From: Spirochaetota bacterium
GTDB lineage: Bacteria; Spirochaetota; Spirochaetia; Treponematales; UBA12059
Length of the DNA stretch: 64,000 nucleotides
Reading direction: 5' to 3'
NCBI GenBank assembly: GCA_026398615.1
Contig: JAPLSN010000019.1
Span: forward strand, 62,001-126,000
Part shown: piece by piece, positions 9,989-20,566 of the stretch
Layout of the letters: every line of letters starts with the position of its first letter
Numbering within the stretch: the stretch's first letter is position 1
Made by a program: the position numbers and the translations under genes
Notes under the pieces: model-generated
What the model saw: only the letters and a program-made list of their open reading frames with translations
Databases searched by the model: none
Told to the model about the DNA's origin: nothing

Positions 9989-10270
9989 ATGTTGCACGAA
10001 CCAGCGGTCCAAGCCGAAAAAGACCCGGCCTTCTCCTACAAGAAGCGCCTTGGCGTCGCTCTCTTCGCCGTGTACGCCCTGATCTACGCCGCGTTCATCG
10101 CGATCAACGTGATCGAACCGAAGATCATGGAGACGATCCTGCCCGGTGGATTGAATCTCGCCGTGGTCTACGGATTCGGCCTGATCGTCTTCGCGTTCCT
10201 CCTGGCGCTCGCCTACAGCGCGATGTGCAGCAGGCGTGAAAAGGCGCTCGAGAAGGCGGGGGAGGCGTGA
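9989..10270 (+). CDS. DUF485 small membrane protein
   Basis: 93 residues with two membrane helices (about 23-43 and 57-78), matching the YjcH/DUF485 family that is usually encoded directly before acetate-type sodium:solute symporters. GGAGG lies 5 bases before the ATG. The TGA at 10268-10270 is one base away from the symporter ATG, so the two form an operon. The family is thought to assist or accompany the symporter; its exact role is unknown. Confidence 0.85.
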   Translation: MLHEPAVQAEKDPAFSYKKRLGVALFAVYALIYAAFIAINVIEPKIMETILPGGLNLAVVYGFGLIVFAFLLALAYSAMCSRREKALEKAGEA

Positions 10271-10271
10271 C

Positions 10272-12215
10272 ATGACCGAAATCCTGCCCGTCATCCTGTT
10301 CATCCTCATCGTCTCCTTCGTCCTGGCCATTTCCTTCTGGTTCGCCAGGAAAGCCAGGAGTTCGAGCGGCTACTACGCGGCCGGAGGCAAAATCCACTGG
10401 TCCGTCAACGGGATCGCCTTTGCCGGGGACTACCTTTCAGCGGCCTCGTTCCTCGGTATCTGCGGCATGATCGCGACGGCCGGGTACGACGGGTTCCTTT
10501 ACTCGATCGGCTATCTCGCGGGCTGGATCGTCGCGCTCTTCATCGTCGCGGAACCGCTGAAACGGCTCGGCAAGTATACATTCACCGACGCGCTCGACGC
10601 CAGGTTCAACGCGAAAGGCATCAAGCTCATGGCGGCGATCAGCACCCTCGTCGTGTCGCTGTTCTACCTGATCCCGCAGATGGTCGGCGCCGGCGTGCTC
10701 GTTACGCCGCTCCTGGGCCTCCCCCACTACGCCGGCGTCATCATGGTCGGCGTCATCGTCATCACGATCGTCGCGACCGCCGGCATGACTTCCACGACCT
10801 ACGTGCAGTTCATCAAGGGGACGCTCCTCATCGTGTTCTCGCTGATCCTCGTCGTGGCGCTCTGCTTCCGCGGACTCTCGACGACGCCCGACCAGGGCGG
10901 CAGAGTCGCGTTCCGCGAATACGCCACGATGGCCGCGACGGAATCCGGCGGGAAGATCGTCCCGGCCGACGCCTCGTACGGGGTCGTCGGCGACGTCACG
11001 GCAAGGAACGTACGGCTCGCCAGGCTCGAGAAGGGCGGCGTCGCGTCGTGGTGGAAGGTCGACGTGTCTACCTCGGGCATGGCGCTCCACGAAACCCAGT
11101 CGCTCGTGACGCAGCCCGACGGCAAGCGCATCGTGAACGGCGCGCCCGAATCGGCCGCCAACAAGCTGGCGCTTGTCGGCAACATGGACAGCATCGACGG
11201 CAAGTCCGGCCCCGGCGTCTCCACCGGGCCGATCGACCCCTTCCGGTTCATCGCCCTCGTAGGCTCGGCGAACAGCAGCGTGCGCCTCTGGAAGGAGCTC
11301 AAGTTCGCCGACGGCCATGACAGGGTGTCCGTCTACTACGGCATGCCGACGCCGGGCAACCGCATCATGCGGCCCGGCCTGAGCTTCAAGGTCGAGGGGA
11401 CGCCGCTCGAACGGATCGACTTCGTATCCCTCATGATCGCGCTGTTCCTCGGGACCGCCGCACTGCCGCACATCCTGATCCGCTACTACACGGTCCCGAG
11501 CGCCAAGGCCGCGCGCAAGTCTACGATCGTCGCCATCGTCGCCATCGGATCCTTCTACGTTCTCACGCTCTTCATGGGACTCGGCGCCATGACGAGCGGC
11601 GTCGTGAACCTCTCGGACAACAACATGTCCGCGCCGCTCCTGGCCCGTTCCTTCGGCACCTTCCTCTTCTCGATGATATCGGCGATCGCCTTCGCCACCG
11701 TCCTCGGCACGGTCAGCGGCCTCATCATCGCGGCCTCGGGCGCGGTCGCGCACGACCTGATGGACCGCTACGCCAACCTGATCCGGGACGACAGGCACAA
11801 GGTTTACGTGGGCAAGGTCGCGGCGTTCGCCGTCGGCGCCATCGCGATCGTCCTCGGGATCCTCTTCAAGGGCATGAACGTGTCCTTCCTCGTCGGGCTC
11901 GCCTTCGCCGTCGCGGCCTCGGCTAACCTGCCTTCGATCGTGATGATGCTGTTCTGGAAGCGCACGACGTCGAAGGGCATCAGCGCTTCCATCCTCGTCG
12001 GCATCCTCGCCTCGATCGGGCTCATCCTCTTCTCGCCCACGATGTTCGAACTGTACGGGCTGGACCCGGCGACCGCCCCGATTCCCCTCAAGAATCCCGG
12101 CATCGTCTCCATCCCCTTGAGCTTCCTCACCATCGTGGTCGTCTCGCTGCTCACGAAACCCGACCGCCTCCCCGACGCGGAGGAGCTTCCCGCCGCGAAG
12201 GCCAAGCCGGCCTGA
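10272..12215 (+). CDS. actP: Sodium:solute symporter, acetate-permease (ActP) type
   Basis: 647 residues, a sodium:solute symporter family member with many hydrophobic helices. The N-terminal YYAAGGKIHWSVNGIAFAGD region is typical of the family. It is longer than E. coli ActP (about 549 residues) because a hydrophilic insertion of roughly 170 residues (about 205-375) interrupts the helices, as in a known longer subgroup. Pairing with DUF485 points to acetate or another short monocarboxylate. The DUF294/CBS protein and NarL-type two-component genes downstream often accompany such transporters. Confidence 0.85.
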   Translation: MTEILPVILFILIVSFVLAISFWFARKARSSSGYYAAGGKIHWSVNGIAFAGDYLSAASFLGICGMIATAGYDGFLYSIGYLAGWIVALFIVAEPLKRLGKYTFTDALDARFNAKGIKLMAAISTLVVSLFYLIPQMVGAGVLVTPLLGLPHYAGVIMVGVIVITIVATAGMTSTTYVQFIKGTLLIVFSLILVVALCFRGLSTTPDQGGRVAFREYATMAATESGGKIVPADASYGVVGDVTARNVRLARLEKGGVASWWKVDVSTSGMALHETQSLVTQPDGKRIVNGAPESAANKLALVGNMDSIDGKSGPGVSTGPIDPFRFIALVGSANSSVRLWKELKFADGHDRVSVYYGMPTPGNRIMRPGLSFKVEGTPLERIDFVSLMIALFLGTAALPHILIRYYTVPSAKAARKSTIVAIVAIGSFYVLTLFMGLGAMTSGVVNLSDNNMSAPLLARSFGTFLFSMISAIAFATVLGTVSGLIIAASGAVAHDLMDRYANLIRDDRHKVYVGKVAAFAVGAIAIVLGILFKGMNVSFLVGLAFAVAASANLPSIVMMLFWKRTTSKGISASILVGILASIGLILFSPTMFELYGLDPATAPIPLKNPGIVSIPLSFLTIVVVSLLTKPDRLPDAEELPAAKAKPA

Positions 12216-12226
12216 CATGCCGCATT

Positions 12227-12269
12227 CCGGCATTGCCGCGCCCGGTTCCGACGGGCGCGGCAATGCCGG
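12227..12269 (+). terminator. Perfect 17-bp hairpin between symporter gene and PHP fusion gene
   Basis: The arms at 12227-12243 and 12253-12269 are perfect reverse complements with a 9-base loop. No T-tract follows, so this may be an attenuating or RNA-stabilising hairpin rather than a full terminator. An ATG at 12217 lies just upstream of it, but the start at 12286, after the hairpin, is preferred for the next gene. Confidence 0.5.
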
Positions 12270-12285
12270 GCGGAGCGTCGAACGC

Positions 12286-15200
12286 ATGACCGAACGACCC
12301 GTCCCGACAGCCCTCCACACGCACTCCTCCCTGAGCGACGGGACGCTCGCCCCCGCGGAACTGGCCGCGAGGCTGGCCGACCGCGGCGCGGGTTGGGCTT
12401 CACTCACCGACCATGACACGACCGCGGGATCCGTCCGCTTCCGGGAAGCCCTCGCCCGTCGCGGCGTCGGCTGCATCGACGGCGTCGAACTCACCGTCGC
12501 GACGGAATCCGGCGAAGCGCACCTCCTCGCCTACGGCGCCGACCCGGCCCATCCCGCGCTCGTGGGACTGCTGCCGTCCTCACGGTTGCCTGACCGCCGG
12601 GGCGACGGCCGCACGGGTCCGCGCGCGAACGGGGCGCCGGCGATCTCCGCGGCCATCGCTGCCGTGCACGCCGCCGGCGGAGCCGCCTTCCTCGCGCATC
12701 CCCTGCATCTTGAGCCTGACCCGGTCGCGCTCGGAAGGCTGCTCGATGCGCTGGTGCCGCTCGGCCTCGACGGCATCGAGGCCATGTACGCCGGCTACGA
12801 CGAAGCCAGGGTCGCGCTGCTCCTCGACCTGGCCGACCGCAGGGAGCTCGCCGCGAGCGCCGGAGGCGACTTCCACGAGCCCGGCGTCCGGGGGCAGCCC
12901 GACGTCGTCGCGATGCCGGAACCCCGGTGGAAAGCTTTCCGCGACGTCCTGGTCCGCCGCTCGACGGAAACCCGCCGCCAACCGGCAGCGGAAGGTCCCG
13001 ATGTCGTCGACCCCGCGCCGCCTCGCGACGGCCGCGACCCTGGCGGCATGGATCGTTCCGACCGCAGGATCGGGACGCGCATTCCGGCCAGGGCGGCGCT
13101 CGGAATCGTGCTGCCCGCCATCGTCACCATGATCCTGTTCGTCGCCTCGTCCTTCGCCATCACCATCCCGCGTGTCGAGGCCATGATGCTCGGCCGCAAG
13201 AAGGAGATGATCAGGGAGCTGACGGATTCCGCGATCAGCATCCTGGCGGAATACGAGAAGGCTGCGCGGGGAGGCTCGATGGACGAAGGTCGCGCCAGGA
13301 AGGAGGCTGCCGACCGCATCCGCGATCTCCGCTATGGCAAGGACAACAAGGATTACTTCTGGGTGACGGACATGACCCCCCGCATGATCGTCCACCCCTA
13401 CAGACGGGAACTCGAGGGCACGGACGTGTCCGGCTTCCGCGACGGGAACGGTCTGCGCGTGTTCGTCGAGTTCGTCCACGCCGTCGCCGACGCTGCCGAG
13501 GGCTACGTCGAGTACTCCTGGCAGTGGAAGGACGACGCGAACCGCGTCGCGCCCAAGCTGTCGTTCGTCAGGCGCTACGCGCCATGGGATTGGGTGATCG
13601 GCACGGGTGTCTACCTCGAGGACGTCCGCGCCGAAATCGATTCGCTCACCGCGGACCTCGTCGTCCTCGATCTCTGCGTCACCGCCATCCTGGCACTGGC
13701 CATTTCCCTGATGGTCCGGCGCGGTTTCCGCGTCGAACGGGGCAGGCTCCTGGCTGAAGCCGCGCTGAAGGAATCGCGGGAGCGGTACCGTGCGCTCGCG
13801 GAAGGGGCCACCGACGGGACAGCGATCGTCGTGGAAGGTTCCTGCGCCTTCGCGAACGGCGCATTCCTTTCGATGGCCGGCTACGAGGAGCGCGAGATCC
13901 AGCTGTTCCGCGCCGACGAACTTTTCGAGCCGCATCCCGGCGAGGAAGCGTTCGACGACCGCTCATTCTCGTCCTCGCCCGACGGCGGCCTGTCCGACGG
14001 CGCTTCCATCGAGTGCAGGCTCGCCAGGCGCTCCGGCGAACGCCTCGACGTCCGGGTTTCGGGCATCCCGTTCGCGCTCGGCGGCCGGGAGGGAGCGGTT
14101 CTCTCGGTCAAGGAAGCGAATCCCCGCGGTATCGGTGCATCCTCCCCCGTAACCGACGGCAACATCCCGGACGCGACGGAAGTCATCCGCGAGAAGCGGC
14201 GGCTCGAACGCATCCTCGAGCGGACCGAAGCGGCGGCGCTCTGGATGACCAACCCGGTATCCACCATTGCGTCAGCCCCGCCGACCTGCCGCAGCGCCGA
14301 CCCGATCCGCGAAGCCGCCGCCAGGATGCGGGGCGCGAATTCGGCCGCCGTCATCGTCGAGGACGAATCGGGCAACGCGATCGGCATCGTGACGGCCGGC
14401 GACGTAAGCGCGCGCGCGACCGCTTCCGGCGTCGACCCGGGCGCTGCCGTCGGGACGATCATGAGCGCGCCCATTGTGTCGGTCCTGCCATCCGCCACCG
14501 TCTCGGACGCCATGGCCGCGATGCGCGAATCCCGCGTCGGCACGGTCGCGCTCCGCGACGGGACTGGTGCGATCCGCGGACTCGCCGGCGCCTCCGACAT
14601 CGCGAAGCTCGCAGGCGGGACCTTCGCCACGATCCGGGATGCCGCGCTGAAGGCGGAATCGCCGGGGGAGCTTGAAGATCTCGTCGACGAGGCGTTCGCC
14701 AACGTCGGGGCGAGCTTCTCCGCGGGAACCCGCGCGCGCGTCGTCCTCGGCAGCCTGTCGGGCGTCCAGGACGCCGTTGCCGCCAGCGTCGCGAGGCTCG
14801 CCGCGGAGCGGCTCGGACCGGCGCCCGCGGACTGGGTGTTCATGGCCCTCGGCAGCATGGGTCGCGGCGAGCGTCTCCCCGGGTCGGACCAGGACAATGC
14901 CCTGGCATGGAAACACGAGGACGGCGACCCCGGGCGCGAGCGCGCCTATTTCGCATCTTTAGGCCAGGCGATCTGCGACGGCCTCGAGCTCGCCGGATTC
15001 CCGCGCTGCCCCGGCGGGGTCATGGCATCCTCTGACGAATGGAACAGGCCGATCAGCGAATGGGAAAAACGCATCGCGCAGGACATCAGCGAACCGGAAC
15101 CGGACAGGATGCTGAACCTCCACATTCTCTTCGATTTCAGGGCCGTCGCCGGTTCACCCGCGATCGCCGAATCGCTTCGCGACACCGCGTACTCCATCGT

Positions 15201-15621
15201 CGGCGGTGAACCGGGATTCTTCATCCACCTTGCCCGCGACGCCCGGCTCAGGAAGACCCCGGGGTCGACCGCGCGCGCACGACAGGGCGTCGACCTCAAG
15301 GAAGCCAGCGCGGCGATAACGGCTTTCGCCCGCGTGTACGCGCTCAAGCACGGAGTACGCGCCACCAGCACTTTCGACCGGCTCGATGCCCTTGCCGAGT
15401 CCGGCGCCATCCGACCGGATACCCGCGACAATGTCGCCGACGCCCACGATTCGCTCATGGCCATGCGACTCGAACACGCGTACGACCGGCTCCGCCGCGG
15501 CGACCGCGTTCCACCTCGACCGCTCTCCGCCCGCGAGGAGGCACTCCTTGGCTTTGCCCGCGCCCAGGCGGCGCTCCTCCAGCAGCGGATCGGGTTTGAT
15601 TTCCTCGGGTCGGCGCTGTGA
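12286..15621 (+). CDS. PHP phosphoesterase fused to Cache-PAS-CBS-DUF294 sensor protein
   Basis: About 1111 residues in one uninterrupted frame. The N-terminal PHP domain (about 8-230) keeps its metal ligands: HTHSSLSDG, TDHDTT, GVELT, AFLAHPLH and GGDFHEPG. Then come TM1 (about 263-285), an sCache_2-like extracellular domain (DYFWVTD, HPY near 351-400), TM2 (about 455-478), PAS (about 490-600), a CBS pair (about 660-785) and a DUF294 nucleotidyltransferase-like region (GSMGRGER near 856, D868 and D870) with its C-terminal domain. DUF294/CBS proteins commonly sit beside acetate symporters and kinases. The PHP fusion is unusual. A second start at 13048 (before MDRSD) lacks a good ribosome-binding site, so one long protein is favoured. 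Confidence 0.8.
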   Translation: MTERPVPTALHTHSSLSDGTLAPAELAARLADRGAGWASLTDHDTTAGSVRFREALARRGVGCIDGVELTVATESGEAHLLAYGADPAHPALVGLLPSSRLPDRRGDGRTGPRANGAPAISAAIAAVHAAGGAAFLAHPLHLEPDPVALGRLLDALVPLGLDGIEAMYAGYDEARVALLLDLADRRELAASAGGDFHEPGVRGQPDVVAMPEPRWKAFRDVLVRRSTETRRQPAAEGPDVVDPAPPRDGRDPGGMDRSDRRIGTRIPARAALGIVLPAIVTMILFVASSFAITIPRVEAMMLGRKKEMIRELTDSAISILAEYEKAARGGSMDEGRARKEAADRIRDLRYGKDNKDYFWVTDMTPRMIVHPYRRELEGTDVSGFRDGNGLRVFVEFVHAVADAAEGYVEYSWQWKDDANRVAPKLSFVRRYAPWDWVIGTGVYLEDVRAEIDSLTADLVVLDLCVTAILALAISLMVRRGFRVERGRLLAEAALKESRERYRALAEGATDGTAIVVEGSCAFANGAFLSMAGYEEREIQLFRADELFEPHPGEEAFDDRSFSSSPDGGLSDGASIECRLARRSGERLDVRVSGIPFALGGREGAVLSVKEANPRGIGASSPVTDGNIPDATEVIREKRRLERILERTEAAALWMTNPVSTIASAPPTCRSADPIREAAARMRGANSAAVIVEDESGNAIGIVTAGDVSARATASGVDPGAAVGTIMSAPIVSVLPSATVSDAMAAMRESRVGTVALRDGTGAIRGLAGASDIAKLAGGTFATIRDAALKAESPGELEDLVDEAFANVGASFSAGTRARVVLGSLSGVQDAVAASVARLAAERLGPAPADWVFMALGSMGRGERLPGSDQDNALAWKHEDGDPGRERAYFASLGQAICDGLELAGFPRCPGGVMASSDEWNRPISEWEKRIAQDISEPEPDRMLNLHILFDFRAVAGSPAIAESLRDTAYSIVGGEPGFFIHLARDARLRKTPGSTARARQGVDLKEASAAITAFARVYALKHGVRATSTFDRLDALAESGAIRPDTRDNVADAHDSLMAMRLEHAYDRLRRGDRVPPRPLSAREEALLGFARAQAALLQQRIGFDFLGSAL

Positions 15622-15682: not shown

Positions 15683-15741
15683 GAGGGATGCAGCTACAAT
15701 CGCCCAAGGTTCAGGAACACGGGAAGGCGGCTCGGGAAAAC

Positions 15742-17547
15742 ATGGAGAGGCGGACCTGGGGCATCGGCGGGAAGTTCATCTTCTTCATTTCCTTTTCGGT
15801 CGTCGTGTTCATGGCGGCCACCTTCGCCATCAGCCAGGACGTGCTCCGGAAATACGCGCTTAAGACCGCCGACGAACTCGCGACGACCATCCTCGACCAG
15901 ACGGACAAGCGGATCGGGGAATTCTTCCGGGAGATGGAATATCTCGCCAAGGGGCTGGCCGCCACGCAGGTCGTACGGTCAGTCGATGCGGACGGGATGC
16001 GCGATCTCTTCGTCTCCACCGTCGCCGCGCGCACGCGCTACCTGCGGGCCATCTACCTCGGCACCGTGGACGGCAGGATGTTCGAATGGGGCGAAGGCAG
16101 GGGCTTCGTCGACCATGCGCCCTCATTCCCGGCCGGTTACGACCCCCGGGTACGCCCGTGGTACCTCGATGCCGTCGCGAAGGATGCCTTTTCGATATCG
16201 CCGCCCTACCGCTTCGCGAGCGTCGACGACCTCGGCATCACCTGCGTGATTCCCGTCCGCGCCGCTGATGGCGCCTTCGTCGGGGTTCTCGGGCTGGACA
16301 TCCTCCTCGACGACTTGAAGAGCATCCTCGAAGACCTCCGGATACCGCAGGAAGGCAAGGCGCTCATCCTGAGCCCGGATGGCGACATCGTGGCAAGCCA
16401 GTTCCCGCAAGACCGCGCCGCCGGCTTCGTCATGAAACGCTTCGCCGTCCCCGGCGGCGAAGGCATCTTCGACGACGCGTCGGGCAGCTTCTCGGGTGAG
16501 GTCGACGGCCGGAATTTCCACTTCGTCCACCGGAAGGCGGAGAACTTCGACTGGATCATCGCGGTCGCAATGCCGCTCGGCTCGATCATGGCATCCATGC
16601 GTTCGCTGCTGAGCTTCATCACCGCGAGCGAGATATTCCTCATGACCATGCTCATCGTCGCCATCGCGGCCATCACGGGCCGGCTCATCATCTCCCCGCT
16701 CACGCACATCGTGTCCGTCATCAACAAGATCGAGGGCGGCCGGAAGGACGCGCGCGTGACAGTCCGGTCGAAGGACGAATTCGGCCTGCTCGGGCGGGAG
16801 TTCAACAAGCTCGTGGACGCCGTCGCCGAGTACTCCCGCGACCTCGAGGACAAGGTCGCCCGACGCACCGGGGAGATCTGGCGGCTCCAGCGCGAGAACA
16901 CCCAGCTCCGCATCCTCGAGGAGCGCCAGAGGATCTACCGTGACATGCACGATTCCATCGGAGCCAAGCTGACGAACATCTTCTTCAGCAACGGCGTGGC
17001 CCGCGACCTGTCCAAGGACGGTCCCGAGAAGCTCCGGGAACTGCTCGGGCGGATCGAGGCGAACTGCCTCCAGGCGATCCGCAAGCTCAAGGAAATCATC
17101 CTGGGGATGAGACGGGACGACCTGATCGCCTCCGACGCCGCGAAGATCCTGTCGGCGGGCATCCGCCAGCGGCTCCAGACGAAGGACATCGCCTTCGACT
17201 GCCGCATGCAGAACAGGGAAGTGTTCAACGCGCTCGACCCCGAGGCGCGCGGCGAGGTCGAAAAGGTGTTCGAGGAGCTCGTCAGCAACGTCTTGAAGCA
17301 TTCGGGCGCTTCGCGCGTGCGTCTCCGGCTCAGGGCCGGCACGGAAGGGTTGTCGATACGGTTTTCGGACGACGGCCGGGGCTTCGAACCCCGCAGCGCG
17401 CCGGGGACGGTCTCGGGCCTGGACAACATCAAGTACCGGATCGAACGCCTCGGCGGCACCCTCCGGTCGGAATCGGGAGCGGGACGTGGCACGGCATTCG
17501 CCATTTCCATTCCCGCGCCGCCGCAGGAGGCGATGCATGCGGGATGA
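15742..17547 (+). CDS. Cache-domain sensor histidine kinase, NarL/HisKA_3 type
   Basis: About 601 residues from the start chosen at 15742 (GGGAA close upstream); an in-frame ATG at 15688 is possible. TM1 (about 9-30) is followed by an extracytoplasmic double-Cache domain (about 40-285; RPWYLDAV motif), TM2 (about 305-330), HAMP, HisKA_3 with the phospho-acceptor in YRDMHDSIGAKL, and a HATPase domain (FEELVSNVLKHS). Cache domains bind small organic acids or amino acids. It pairs with the LuxR-type regulator that overlaps its 3' end and probably reports the substrate of the adjacent transporters. Confidence 0.87.
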   Translation: MERRTWGIGGKFIFFISFSVVVFMAATFAISQDVLRKYALKTADELATTILDQTDKRIGEFFREMEYLAKGLAATQVVRSVDADGMRDLFVSTVAARTRYLRAIYLGTVDGRMFEWGEGRGFVDHAPSFPAGYDPRVRPWYLDAVAKDAFSISPPYRFASVDDLGITCVIPVRAADGAFVGVLGLDILLDDLKSILEDLRIPQEGKALILSPDGDIVASQFPQDRAAGFVMKRFAVPGGEGIFDDASGSFSGEVDGRNFHFVHRKAENFDWIIAVAMPLGSIMASMRSLLSFITASEIFLMTMLIVAIAAITGRLIISPLTHIVSVINKIEGGRKDARVTVRSKDEFGLLGREFNKLVDAVAEYSRDLEDKVARRTGEIWRLQRENTQLRILEERQRIYRDMHDSIGAKLTNIFFSNGVARDLSKDGPEKLRELLGRIEANCLQAIRKLKEIILGMRRDDLIASDAAKILSAGIRQRLQTKDIAFDCRMQNREVFNALDPEARGEVEKVFEELVSNVLKHSGASRVRLRLRAGTEGLSIRFSDDGRGFEPRSAPGTVSGLDNIKYRIERLGGTLRSESGAGRGTAFAISIPAPPQEAMHAG

Positions 17548-18199
17548 GCGGCCGCCTTCCCCGGCGACGGTGGCGATCGTCGAGGACGAGCGCGAGGTGC
17601 GCGAGGGCTTGCGCTACCTCCTCGGGCTCGACGACCGCCTGTGCATCCGGGCCACGTTCGGCGACGCCGAGGAATTCCTGTCCTGGCTCGCGGCGAACCC
17701 GGAGCCGGATCTGGTCCTCATGGACATCAACCTCCCGGGCATGAGCGGCATCGAGGCCACGAGACTCGTCAGGGAACGGTTTCCGTCCGTCATCGTGCTG
17801 ATCCTCACCATCTTCGAGGACGAGGACAAGATCCTGGCTTCCATCAGGGCCGGCGCCAGGGGCTACATCCTCAAGAACACGAAGCCCGAAGCCCTGATCG
17901 AGCAGATCCTGAGCGCGCGGGACGAGGGTTCGCCCATCAGCCCCACCGTGGCGCGGCGCCTCCTCGACGAACTCCGGCGTTCGGGCGGGGATCGCACGGC
18001 GGTCGACTACAACCTGACCCCGCGGGAGCAGGAAGTCCTCAAGGACATCGTCGACGGGCTGACCTACCGCGAGCTGGCCGAACGGCACCACATCGCGGGT
18101 TCGACAGCGAAAAAGCACATCCTCCACATCTACCAGAAGCTCAACGTCTCCTCGAAGGCCGAAATCGTCCGCAAGGCGATCAAGGAAGGGTTGATCTGA
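17537..18199 (+). CDS. NarL/LuxR-family response regulator
   Basis: 220 residues. The receiver (1-125) has its phospho-acceptor Asp in LVLMDINLPGMSG. A LuxR-type helix-turn-helix (about 155-220; LTPREQEVLKDIVDGL) follows. The ATG at 17537 overlaps the kinase gene by 11 bases and has AGGAGG 6 bases upstream, so kinase and regulator are translated together. Likely targets are the neighbouring symporter genes, by analogy with acetate-regulating CrbS/CrbR-type systems; that target assignment is inferred from position. Confidence 0.9.
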   Translation: MRDERPPSPATVAIVEDEREVREGLRYLLGLDDRLCIRATFGDAEEFLSWLAANPEPDLVLMDINLPGMSGIEATRLVRERFPSVIVLILTIFEDEDKILASIRAGARGYILKNTKPEALIEQILSARDEGSPISPTVARRLLDELRRSGGDRTAVDYNLTPREQEVLKDIVDGLTYRELAERHHIAGSTAKKHILHIYQKLNVSSKAEIVRKAIKEGLI

Positions 18200-18336
18200 C
18201 GGGCTTTGGACCTGTTTTGGCGAAAAATACATCCTTTGGTGCATATCGCCCCCGGGAATTCGGATTTACACTGATGCATCGTCCGGGTCTCCCATCCGGA
18301 GAGTGACGGACGAATCCCAGGGTCAAGGAGTCATAC

Positions 18337-19650
18337 ATGAGCGCAGCGAGCGTTGAAAAGAAGGGCTGGTTCGACTGGTATTTCAAGTCCAACCTGCTCA
18401 TGAGGATCCTCATCGCACTGGTCGCCGGTGCCGTCGTCGGCATCATCCTCGGGTTCAACCCCGGGGCGGTCAAGCCGTTCGTCGACTATTCCAAGTTCTT
18501 CGGCGACCTCTTCATCCGCCTGCTCAAGATGATCGTCGTGCCGGTCATCCTGTTCTCCCTCATCGCGGGCGCCGCGAGCATCGCCCCGTCGCGGCTCGGC
18601 CGCGTCGGCGTGAAGATCATGGTGTACTACCTCTTCACGAGCGCCCTGGCCGTCGTCATCGGCCTCGCCTTCGCCAATATCCTCCAGCCGGGCCTCGGCA
18701 TGAGCATCGTGGGCGACGCAGCGATCAAGGGCAAGGCCGCGGAAGCCCCGACCCTCATCCAGACCCTCCTCAACATCGTACCGACCAACCCGATCGACTC
18801 GCTGGCCAGGACCGACGTTCTCCCGATCATCTTCTTCGCGCTCGTCTTCGGCCTCGCCATCTCCTACGTCAAGGATTCCAAGGTCCCGGCCATCGCCAAG
18901 GGCGCCGAAACCCTGTTCGACCTCTGCAACGCGGCTGCCGAAACCATGTACAAGGTCGTGTCCGGCGTCATGCAGTACGCGCCGATCGGCGTCTTCGTCC
19001 TGATCGCCACCGTCTTCGCTCAGCAGGGCGCCAAGGCGATCGGCCCCCTCCTCATGGTCACCGTCACCGTCTACCTCGGGCTCCTCGTCCACCTGGTCGG
19101 CGTCTACGGCGGTTTCCTTGCGATCTTCCGGCTCGGCTTCTTCAAGTTCCTCAAGGGCGCCAACGAAGCCATGATCACCGCCTTCGTCACGCGCTCCTCG
19201 AACGGCACGCTTCCCGTCACCATGCGCGTCTCCGAGGAAAAGCTCGGCATCCCGCGCGGCATCTGCTCCTTCACCCTGCCGCTGGGCGCCACGATCAACA
19301 TGGACGGCACCGCGATCTACCTGGGCGTCTGCGCCATGTTCATCGGCTATGCCACGGGCAACCCGCTCACCTTCAACCAGCAGGCCACGGTCGTGGTCAC
19401 GGCCACCCTCGCGTCCATCGGCACCGCCGGCGTGCCCGGCGCCGGCGCCATCATGCTCCTCATGGTCCTCGAGTCCATCGGCCTCAAGGTGACGGAAGGT
19501 TCCGCCATCGCGGCCGCCTACGCCATGATCCTGGGCATCGACGCCCTGCTCGACATGGGCCGCACCAGCCTCAACGTCACCGGCGACATCGTCGGTTCGG
19601 CCATCGTCGCCAAGTCCGAAAAGGAACTCGACCTGGCCATGTGGAAGTGA
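18337..19650 (+). CDS. Dicarboxylate/amino acid:cation symporter (DAACS family)
   Basis: 437 residues, the usual length for GltP/DctA transporters. The family features are visible: a serine-rich re-entrant loop (VTRSSNGTLPVTMRV) and TLPLGATINMDGTA, plus about eight membrane helices. AAGGAG lies 6 bases before the ATG. These proteins import glutamate, aspartate or C4-dicarboxylates with sodium or protons. The Asp/Glu racemase gene next door favours an acidic amino acid, although DctA-like succinate uptake is possible. It is followed by two hairpins, the second a good terminator. Confidence 0.9.
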   Translation: MSAASVEKKGWFDWYFKSNLLMRILIALVAGAVVGIILGFNPGAVKPFVDYSKFFGDLFIRLLKMIVVPVILFSLIAGAASIAPSRLGRVGVKIMVYYLFTSALAVVIGLAFANILQPGLGMSIVGDAAIKGKAAEAPTLIQTLLNIVPTNPIDSLARTDVLPIIFFALVFGLAISYVKDSKVPAIAKGAETLFDLCNAAAETMYKVVSGVMQYAPIGVFVLIATVFAQQGAKAIGPLLMVTVTVYLGLLVHLVGVYGGFLAIFRLGFFKFLKGANEAMITAFVTRSSNGTLPVTMRVSEEKLGIPRGICSFTLPLGATINMDGTAIYLGVCAMFIGYATGNPLTFNQQATVVVTATLASIGTAGVPGAGAIMLLMVLESIGLKVTEGSAIAAAYAMILGIDALLDMGRTSLNVTGDIVGSAIVAKSEKELDLAMWK

Positions 19651-19665
19651 TCCTCTTTTCCTGAA

Positions 19666-19700
19666 AGGCAAGCGGCAGGCTCGACGCGTGCCGCTTGCCT
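19666..19700 (+). repeat. 12-bp inverted repeat after the symporter gene
   Basis: AGGCAAGCGGCA (19666-19677) pairs perfectly with 19689-19700 across an 11-base loop. It lies 16 bases after the symporter stop codon. No T-run follows directly; the stronger terminator is the next hairpin. Confidence 0.55.
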
Positions 19701-19724
19701 GCCCAGTCGATGCATCGTCTTCCT

Positions 19725-19759
19725 GGACCGGAGCGCGGAAAAGCGGTCCGGTCCTTTTT
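19725..19759 (+). terminator. Rho-independent terminator
   Basis: GGACCGGA (19725-19732) pairs with TCCGGTCC (19747-19754), followed at once by five Ts (19755-19759). It closes the symporter transcript just before the ribosome-binding site of the racemase gene, so the racemase may depend on read-through or its own promoter. Confidence 0.7.
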
Positions 19760-19780
19760 CCATCCGGAGGAGGTTCCAGG

Positions 19781-20566
19781 GTGCGTGAAAGGGTAATCGT
19801 CATCGGGGGCGGGGTCGGCCCGATGGCTGGGGTGGCGCTCCACGCCAGGATCATCGAGAACACCCTGACCGACGGCAGCGACCAGTCGCACCTCGACGTG
19901 CATCACTATTCGCGCTCGTCCGACATCCCGGACCGGACGGACTGGCTGCTCGGGAAGACGGCCGACGATCCGGTGGAAGGGATGGTCCGGACCTTCATGG
20001 CCGCGGACGACGCGCTCCAAAGAAGCGGAAGGGAAGCGGTCGGCGGCGTGCCCTGCAACACCTTCCACGCCCCCGCCATCTTCGACCGATTCCTGCGCCG
20101 CCTCGAAGAGGAGGGCATCGGCATACGGGTGCTCAACATGCTCGACGAGAGCATCGCCCTCCTGGGAATGCTGGCACCCTGCGCCCGTGCCATCGGCATC
20201 CTCTCCACGACCGGCACCCGGATGAGCGGGGTGTACGACCGCCTCCTCGAGCGGAACGGCATGCGCTCCGTCCTGGTATCGGATGCCGACCAGGCGAGGC
20301 TCCACGAAGCCATCTATGACCGGGTCTGGGGATTGAAGGCGGCCAATCCTCCGTCGGAGCGGGCGGTCGCCGTGACGAGGGAACTGGCGGAAAGCCTCGC
20401 CGCGCAGGGCGCGGAAGCGACACTCCTGGCCTGCACGGAATTGCCGCTCGCGATCCCCGACGGCAACGTGGCGGGCGTGCCCTGCGTCGATCCCGTCCTG
20501 GCTCTCGCCCGCGCGCTCATCCGGGAAGCCGCGCCGGGAAAGCTGAAAGCTCTCGGGGCGCCCTGA
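19781..20566 (+). CDS. Aspartate/glutamate racemase family protein
   Basis: 261 residues starting with GTG at 19781, with GGAGGAGG about 8 bases upstream. Both catalytic cysteines of the family are present: GGVPCNTFHAP and LLACTELPL. The N-terminal GGGVGPMAG is the usual nucleotide-fold-like opening. PLP-independent racemases of this group interconvert L- and D-aspartate or glutamate, or related substrates. Placement after an acidic amino acid transporter gene suggests use of imported Asp/Glu or supply of a D-amino acid for the wall. The exact substrate is not certain. Confidence 0.87.
   Translation: MRERVIVIGGGVGPMAGVALHARIIENTLTDGSDQSHLDVHHYSRSSDIPDRTDWLLGKTADDPVEGMVRTFMAADDALQRSGREAVGGVPCNTFHAPAIFDRFLRRLEEEGIGIRVLNMLDESIALLGMLAPCARAIGILSTTGTRMSGVYDRLLERNGMRSVLVSDADQARLHEAIYDRVWGLKAANPPSERAVAVTRELAESLAAQGAEATLLACTELPLAIPDGNVAGVPCVDPVLALARALIREAAPGKLKALGAP

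What the first reader, a model, noticed from the sequence alone, without database searches (positions are those of the whole stretch)
12286..15621. Five-domain fusion of a PHP phosphoesterase with a Cache-PAS-CBS-DUF294 membrane sensor
Seen: one open frame joins an apparently complete PHP metal-binding site to two membrane helices, an extracellular Cache domain, PAS, two CBS motifs and a DUF294 nucleotidyltransferase-like region. Known: DUF294/CBS proteins accompany acetate-type symporters, and PHP enzymes hydrolyse phosphoesters or nucleotides. Inferred: one protein might sense an extracellular ligand (Cache) and adenylates (CBS) and gate two catalytic activities, perhaps making and removing a nucleotide modification or a small nucleotide. 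I do not recall this combination as described.
Basis: partly seen in the sequence, partly recalled or inferred. Interest (0 to 1): 0.75.

Follow-up and report, generated by a model that had tools for sequence, protein, structure and literature searches.

The report
Carboxylate-sensing nucleotidyltransferase fused to a phosphodiesterase
This spirochaete gene really does encode one membrane protein that joins a sensor for small organic acids to two opposing-looking enzymes, one of a kind that attaches nucleotides and one of a kind that cuts phosphoester bonds, and its relatives carry unrelated cutting enzymes in the same position, which suggests an undescribed chemical on/off switch for the neighbouring acetate/pyruvate-type transporter.

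Summary
Confirmed. One uninterrupted frame (ATG 12286, stop 15621) encodes PHP, TM, sCache_2, TM, PAS, a CBS pair, DUF294 and DUF294_C. The same architecture is complete in 16 other Spirochaetota genomes (33-51% identity), with every PHP metal ligand and the DUF294 catalytic motif invariant and the linker under purifying selection. The Cache domain has all seven residues of PscD's C2/C3-carboxylate pocket. A DUF485 gene and a monocarboxylate-type symporter lie beside it. Wider survey: DUF294 proteins usually come with one phosphodiesterase-like partner: RNase_T exonuclease in a nearby gene (26 of 33 loci) or fused (one genome); PHP fused (here); a CbiR/AP-endonuclease-like TIM barrel fused; a calcineurin-type phosphoesterase adjacent; or a DUF6915-like domain, fused or adjacent. 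No exonuclease lies near any of 22 tested loci with another partner (Fisher p about 1e-9, uncorrected for phylogeny). Best reading: DUF294 attaches a nucleotide, the partner removes or degrades it, and extracellular carboxylate sets the balance, probably controlling uptake. Product, target and direction are unproven. I found no description of the fusion or of the exchangeable partner slot; the P. putida DUF294-exonuclease operon is known. New variant of a known kind.

The parts
9989..10270 (+). DUF485 small membrane protein (93 aa), partner of the symporter
   Evidence: Pfam DUF485 1.5e-10; same gene beside homologous loci
10272..12215 (+). SSF sodium:solute symporter, MctC/ActP-like monocarboxylate type
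   Evidence: Pfam SSF 3e-70; NCBIfam MctC 1e-133, ActP 7e-121, both below the curated cut-offs
12227..12268 (+). strong hairpin between symporter stop and PHP-DUF294 start
   Evidence: RNA fold -53.4 kcal/mol, z -5.5
12286..15621 (+). the fusion gene, 1111 aa
12310..12900 (+). PHP domain (residues 9-205), complete metal site, reduced cap insertion
12901..13098 (+). linker PHP to TM1 (residues 206-271)
   Evidence: dN/dS 0.07-0.34 in close homologue pairs
13099..13170 (+). TM helix 1 (about residues 272-295)
   Evidence: hydrophobic stretch read from the translation; boundaries approximate
13195..13644 (+). extracytoplasmic sCache_2 domain (304-453) with full C2/C3-carboxylate pocket Y357 W359 H370 F393 Y410 W412 K424
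13654..13722 (+). TM helix 2 (about residues 457-479)
   Evidence: hydrophobic stretch read from the translation; boundaries approximate
13780..14109 (+). PAS domain (about 499-608)
   Evidence: TIGR00229
14248..14625 (+). pair of CBS motifs (about 655-780)
14710..15102 (+). DUF294 nucleotidyltransferase domain (809-939), GSxxRxE...SDQD motif
15256..15603 (+). DUF294_C substrate-binding domain (991-1106)

Best explanation
It is a membrane-anchored, probably bifunctional signalling enzyme. The extracytoplasmic Cache domain binds a short monocarboxylate (acetate, propionate, pyruvate or glycolate type). The signal passes through TM2 to the cytoplasmic PAS, CBS and DUF294 modules. DUF294 transfers a nucleoside monophosphate to a target, most likely a protein of the neighbouring DUF485/symporter uptake system. 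The cytoplasmic N-terminal PHP domain hydrolyses the nucleotidyl phosphodiester and so reverses the modification, as the HD domain does in GlnD. Carboxylate and perhaps adenylate binding set the balance. Shown: architecture, conservation of both active sites, the carboxylate pocket, the symporter link, and the association of DUF294 with one phosphodiesterase-like partner. Inferred: that both domains are active, that PHP acts on the DUF294 product, that the product is a protein modification, and that the target is the symporter system.
For: Both active sites invariant in 17 divergent fusions. All seven pocket residues of the carboxylate receptor PscD identical and invariant. Symporter adjacent in 16 of 17 scored fusion loci, in three orientations. 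DUF294 partners are repeatedly phosphodiesterase folds in one slot: RNase_T in trans or fused N-terminally (G296), CbiR-like TIM barrel, calcineurin-type gene overlapping a module-less Cache-DUF294 gene. Exonuclease 26/33 versus 0/22 where another partner exists. P. putida: the nuclease deletion and the actP-I deletion share the pyruvate phenotype, while the DUF294 deletion has none, as expected if DUF294 places an inhibitory mark (PMC9927547). GlnD precedent for an NTase with a hydrolase in one chain (general knowledge; clan link of DUF294_C in PMC3710099).
Against: No biochemistry of any DUF294 protein was found. RNase_T and PHP are known mainly from RNA and nucleotide substrates. Four DUF294 loci have no recognised partner (L117, L138, L166, L175). 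The DUF6915-like partner has no known activity. Partner exclusivity partly follows phylogeny. The P. putida authors propose mRNA decay instead.
Confidence: 0.42

Rival explanations
1. DUF294 makes a small nucleotide or short oligonucleotide signal, and the PHP (elsewhere RNase_T and others) degrades it; no protein is modified.
For: RNase AM-type PHP enzymes degrade short 5'-phosphorylated RNA (PMC9410882) and the RNase_T family holds 3'-5' exonucleases, so short linear nucleotides would suit both; the first Pfam/NCBIfam neighbours of the PHP are nucleotide enzymes.
Against: The PHP lacks the cap found in nucleotide-specific relatives; DUF294_C groups with protein-modifying GlnD/GlnE C-termini (PMC3710099); no dedicated receptor gene was noticed in the loci.
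Confidence: 0.22
2. The PHP and DUF294 activities are chemically unrelated; the PHP is a tethered phosphatase, for example clearing a nucleotide that the CBS or PAS modules sense, and the fusion only co-locates them.
For: The slot also holds a DUF6915-like domain without known phosphodiesterase activity; canonical DUF294 proteins carry a cNMP-binding domain that the fusions lack.
Against: Several unrelated phosphodiester-cleaving folds in the same slot, with near-exclusive distribution, are not expected if their chemistry were unconnected to DUF294.
Confidence: 0.15
3. The partner hydrolases act on RNA (regulated mRNA or tRNA processing) and DUF294 regulates them or modifies RNA ends.
For: RNase_T and RNase AM relatives are RNases; the P. 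putida authors speculate on mRNA decay (PMC9927547).
Against: RNase AM-type PHPs run 5' to 3' and RNase_T 3' to 5', so they do not share an RNA end; a calcineurin-type and a CbiR-like partner are not typical RNases.
Confidence: 0.13
4. Artefact: two neighbouring genes read as one through a lost stop or an assembly error, with translation of the sensor starting near 13048.
For: The linker is poorly conserved, and Cache-DUF294 genes without an N-terminal module exist in other genomes.
Against: Sixteen other genomes have the same continuous frame, linker dN/dS is 0.07-0.34, and a plausible ribosome site precedes 12286 but none is obvious before 13048.
Confidence: 0.01

Closest known systems
PP_0354/PP_0353 operon of Pseudomonas putida (CBS/DUF294 protein with RNase_T exonuclease; targets of MxtR/ErdR = CrbS/R) and its relatives
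   Same: DUF294 with a CBS pair, link to ActP/DUF485 and acetate/pyruvate use, a dedicated phosphodiesterase-like partner
   Different: Soluble cNMP-CBS-DUF294 protein; partner is RNase_T in a separate gene; no Cache, PAS or TM
GlnD (PII uridylyltransferase / uridylyl-removing enzyme)
   Same: Pol-beta type NTase plus a metal-dependent hydrolase in one sensory chain; related C-terminal domain clan
   Different: Hydrolase is HD, not PHP; ACT sensors; soluble; target PII (general knowledge)
RNase AM (YciV) and CV1693 3',5'-nucleotide bisphosphate phosphatase
   Same: Closest PHP sequences; same metal ligands
   Different: They are stand-alone and have an insertion domain about 57 residues longer; scores fall far below the NCBIfam cut-offs
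PscD / McpP / Adeh_3718 (4k08) sCache_2 carboxylate receptors
   Same: All seven pocket residues for C2/C3 carboxylates
   Different: Output is a nucleotidyltransferase/phosphoesterase, not a chemotaxis signalling domain

Membership tests
DUF294/DUF294_C nucleotidyltransferase family | Both Pfam domains above cut-off | tested here: met
   118.8 bits against 21; 73.8 against 22.5
DUF294/DUF294_C nucleotidyltransferase family | NTase motif GSxxRxE...SDxD | tested here: met
   Invariant in 17 fusions
DUF294/DUF294_C nucleotidyltransferase family | Canonical cNMP-binding N-terminus | tested here: not met
   No cNMP domain in the window protein; present in L117, L132, L166
DUF294/DUF294_C nucleotidyltransferase family | Nucleotidyl transfer activity | not testable with these tools
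   No biochemistry found for any member
GlnD bifunctional UTase/UR | HD hydrolase and ACT domains | tested here: not met
   Neither found by Pfam; PHP instead
3',5'-nucleoside bisphosphate phosphatase / RNase AM (NF041577, NF047791) | PHP metal ligands | tested here: met
   H11 H13 D18 H43 E68 H79 H138 D195 H197 invariant
3',5'-nucleoside bisphosphate phosphatase / RNase AM (NF041577, NF047791) | Curated score cut-off | tested here: not met
   102-108 bits against 400; 88-94 against 375
3',5'-nucleoside bisphosphate phosphatase / RNase AM (NF041577, NF047791) | Insertion (cap) domain between motifs III and IV | tested here: not met
   53-85 residues in fused PHPs against 126-133 in stand-alone ones; about 57 fewer than 2yb1/7ug9
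sCache_2 C2/C3 carboxylate sensors | Seven pocket residues of PscD | tested here: met
   Y357 W359 H370 F393 Y410 W412 K424 identical and invariant
sCache_2 C2/C3 carboxylate sensors | Measured ligand binding | not testable with these tools
   Needs thermal shift or calorimetry
DUF294-RNase_T operon system | RNase_T gene beside or fused to DUF294 | tested here: not met
   0 of 10 PHP-fused loci with adequate flanks, window included

The most novel reading that the evidence does not exclude
DUF294 proteins are the writers of a widespread, undescribed reversible nucleotidylation system that gates carboxylate uptake, and at least four unrelated phosphodiesterase folds (RNase_T, PHP, CbiR-like TIM barrel, calcineurin-type), plus a DUF6915-like domain of unknown activity, have been recruited as its erasers; the window protein is a one-chain version with its own extracellular sensor.
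Probability: 0.38. Interest if true: 0.87.

Novelty: new variant of a known kind. Interest (0 to 1): 0.7.

Why it matters
DUF294 nucleotidyltransferases accompany acetate-type transporters in several bacterial phyla, are linked to acetate/pyruvate use through the CrbS/R (MxtR/ErdR) regulon, and have no reaction that I could find described. Seeing unrelated phosphodiesterase folds fill one partner slot turns an orphan family into a testable hypothesis: a writer and an eraser of a nucleotide mark. The spirochaete fusion puts sensor, putative writer and putative eraser in one chain, so ligand, both activities and their coupling could be assayed with one protein; it also gives the DUF6915 family a first functional lead.

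Tried and rejected
Artefact or two-gene reading: rejected. Classifying the PHP as a nucleoside bisphosphate phosphatase or RNase AM: rejected, the score and cap tests fail. The named-organism search of genome contigs with the single protein found only Cache-domain relatives. Fusion outside Spirochaetota: no sign in the SAR324-phylum genomes (strong DUF294 hits lie in frames of 643 aa or less; five were mapped), and no plasmid match covers 80% of the protein; other phyla were not sampled. Literature on DUF294: 15 papers hold the string; the one opened on DUF294 itself (PMC3710099) gives classification only, and several others look like prefix matches to DUF2946; joint searches found none. DUF6915-like domain against solved structures: nothing convincing. 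Structure prediction was not run: the homologues come from loci outside those its rule lists, and a single-sequence model was judged too weak to add anything. A single origin of the fused PHP is compatible with the trees but weakly supported (48/91).

Full report
What is there. The frame 12217-15621 has no internal stop; the likely start is ATG 12286, with GGAG at 12272-12275. Pfam finds PHP, sCache_2, PAS, a CBS pair, DUF294 and DUF294_C in one 1111-aa chain. Two hydrophobic helices flank the Cache domain, so PHP and the PAS-to-DUF294 part lie on the same, presumably cytoplasmic, side (inference from the order of helices and the arginine-rich stretch before the first one).

Is it one gene? 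Yes. The same full-length architecture occurs in G002 (51%) and G022 (45%), other genera of the same family. A DUF294 search over 248 genomes of the class, followed by domain mapping, and a phylum search added 14 more complete copies. That makes 17 complete proteins, plus two cut by contig ends (G201, G040) and two with frame breaks downstream of the Cache domain (G489, G203). All PHP metal ligands and the NTase motif are invariant in the 17. In close pairs dN/dS is 0.10-0.19 in PHP, 0.07-0.34 in the linker and 0.07-0.11 in the rest. The phylum is Spirochaetota: a search around a record titled 'Spirochaetes bacterium' (L025/G538) returned matches with the same contig numbers, coordinates and scores as those of window-phylum genomes.

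The sensor. The best structural relatives of the Cache domain are 4k08 (9e-35) and 5g4y (7e-30), the second being PscD of Pseudomonas syringae. PscD binds acetate, glycolate, propionate and pyruvate through Y90, W92, H103, F126, Y143, W145 and K156, and the paper reports these identical in PscD, McpP and Adeh_3718 (PMC5062169). The alignment places Y357, W359, H370, F393, Y410, W412 and K424 at these positions; all are invariant in the 17 proteins. NCBIfam also puts the region nearest MctS and CtpM.

The neighbourhood. A DUF485 gene and an MctC/ActP-like SSF symporter precede the gene. A symporter gene is near 16 of 17 PHP-fused loci scored; the exception starts at a contig end. The order is tandem in the window's family, head-to-head in G249 and mostly tail-to-tail elsewhere. 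Conserved adjacency in several orientations argues for a functional link beyond shared transcription.

The PHP domain. It aligns with 2yb1 (CV1693), 7ug9 (RNase AM) and 3e0f, but the segment between motifs III and IV is about 57 residues shorter. Stand-alone PHPs of the phylum, including one in the window's own genome, have 126-133 residues from the motif III region to the motif IV histidine; the fused ones have 53-85 (the value of 22 printed for the window and L123 comes from a chance AHP earlier in the sequence). In RNase AM this segment is the insertion domain (PMC9410882). A more open site would suit a bulky substrate (inference).

The wider pattern. Not all Cache-DUF294 proteins carry PHP. 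The N-terminal slot can hold an AP_endonuc_2 TIM barrel whose nearest named family is the phosphodiesterase CbiR (G398), or a 150-aa domain remotely related to DUF6915 (twelve loci in the tree set), or nothing. Plasmid-borne DUF294 proteins of Pseudomonadota and Bacteroidota lie in clusters such as DUF485 or DUF4212, symporter, DUF294, 3'-5' exonuclease. A profile of those exonucleases found one within 4 kb of 26 of 33 DUF294 loci without another scored partner, against 0 of 22 loci with PHP (10), the DUF6915-like domain (9 fused, 2 adjacent) or the TIM barrel (1); Fisher p = 1.2e-9, and 1.0e-5 for PHP alone. The profile was built from members of the plasmid set, and the loci are related by descent, so the p-values overstate independence. 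Counting only the window's phylum, it is 8 of 12 against 0 of 22 (my count).

Three observations strengthen the slot idea. In G296 RNase_T is fused to the N-terminus of CBS-DUF294, the position PHP holds here. In G061 and G081 the DUF6915-like domain is a separate small gene directly following DUF294. The module-less Cache-DUF294 gene of G424 was expected to have a separate partner; the next gene is a calcineurin-type phosphoesterase whose frame overlaps it. The module-less pair in G295 lies beside a Gpr1/Fun34/YaaH gene, the family of acetate transporters; a short DnaQ-like frame that Pfam did not score lies two genes away. Four loci remain without a recognised partner (L117, L138, L166, L175). 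On the DUF294 tree the eight partner labels need at least 11 changes, PHP between one and three.

Mechanism. The simplest account of unrelated phosphodiester-cleaving folds sharing one slot beside a nucleotidyltransferase is that they remove or degrade its product. GlnD gives the precedent of an NTase and a metal-dependent hydrolase in one chain (general knowledge), and DUF294_C belongs to the GlnD/GlnE C-terminal clan (PMC3710099). In P. putida the nuclease deletion and the actP-I deletion both slow growth on pyruvate and not on acetate, while the DUF294 deletion does neither (PMC9927547). An inhibitory mark placed by DUF294 and removed by the nuclease predicts this, although the authors propose mRNA decay. 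I put 0.42 on the protein-mark version, 0.22 on a soluble nucleotide signal, 0.15 on unrelated co-located activities and 0.13 on an RNA substrate.

Novelty. No paper found in the searched library describes PHP with DUF294 or the exchangeable partner; the library is partial. The DUF294-exonuclease operon itself is known in Pseudomonas (PMC9927547; Pflu5625 in PMC5715377). I rate this a new variant of a known kind.

Noticed in passing
12227-12268: A near-perfect 18-bp hairpin without a T run lies between the symporter stop and the fusion gene; the two closest tandem relatives (L021, L022) have terminator-like hairpins with T runs at the same place, so the sensor gene may be attenuated or separately transcribed.
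   Followed up: partly
10272-12215: The symporter matches SSF in two stretches around an extra segment of roughly 150 residues (about 200-355) not seen in ActP; similar long symporters accompany other Cache-DUF294 genes.
   Followed up: no
L131:10006-10353, L133:7936-8280; N-termini of L046, L050, L051, L055, L099-L101, L104-L107: A 115-150 aa DUF6915-like domain rich in invariant His/Asp (H6 H22 D26 H51 H56 H84 D87 D88 D98 H109) is fused to or follows DUF294; possibly a new metal-dependent enzyme.
   Followed up: partly
L177:31-2283: RNase_T exonuclease fused to CBS-DUF294-DUF294_C in one 751-aa frame of another spirochaete (G296).
   Followed up: yes
15688-20566: Downstream lie a dCache-HAMP histidine kinase, a LuxR-type response regulator, a GltP/DctA-like symporter and an Asp/Glu or cysteate racemase-like gene: a second carboxylate-sensing cluster next to the finding.
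   Followed up: no
L141:5024-11237: Two Cache-DUF294 genes without an N-terminal module face each other with a Gpr1/Fun34/YaaH (acetate-transporter family) gene between them.
   Followed up: partly
L138:5996-9491: In a SAR324-phylum genome (G569) the DUF294 gene directly follows an acetyl-CoA synthetase-type gene.
   Followed up: no
L096:3312-6355 and L183:2-3835: In G489 and G203 the fusion is split by a frame break downstream of the Cache domain; assembly error or decay was not distinguished.
   Followed up: no
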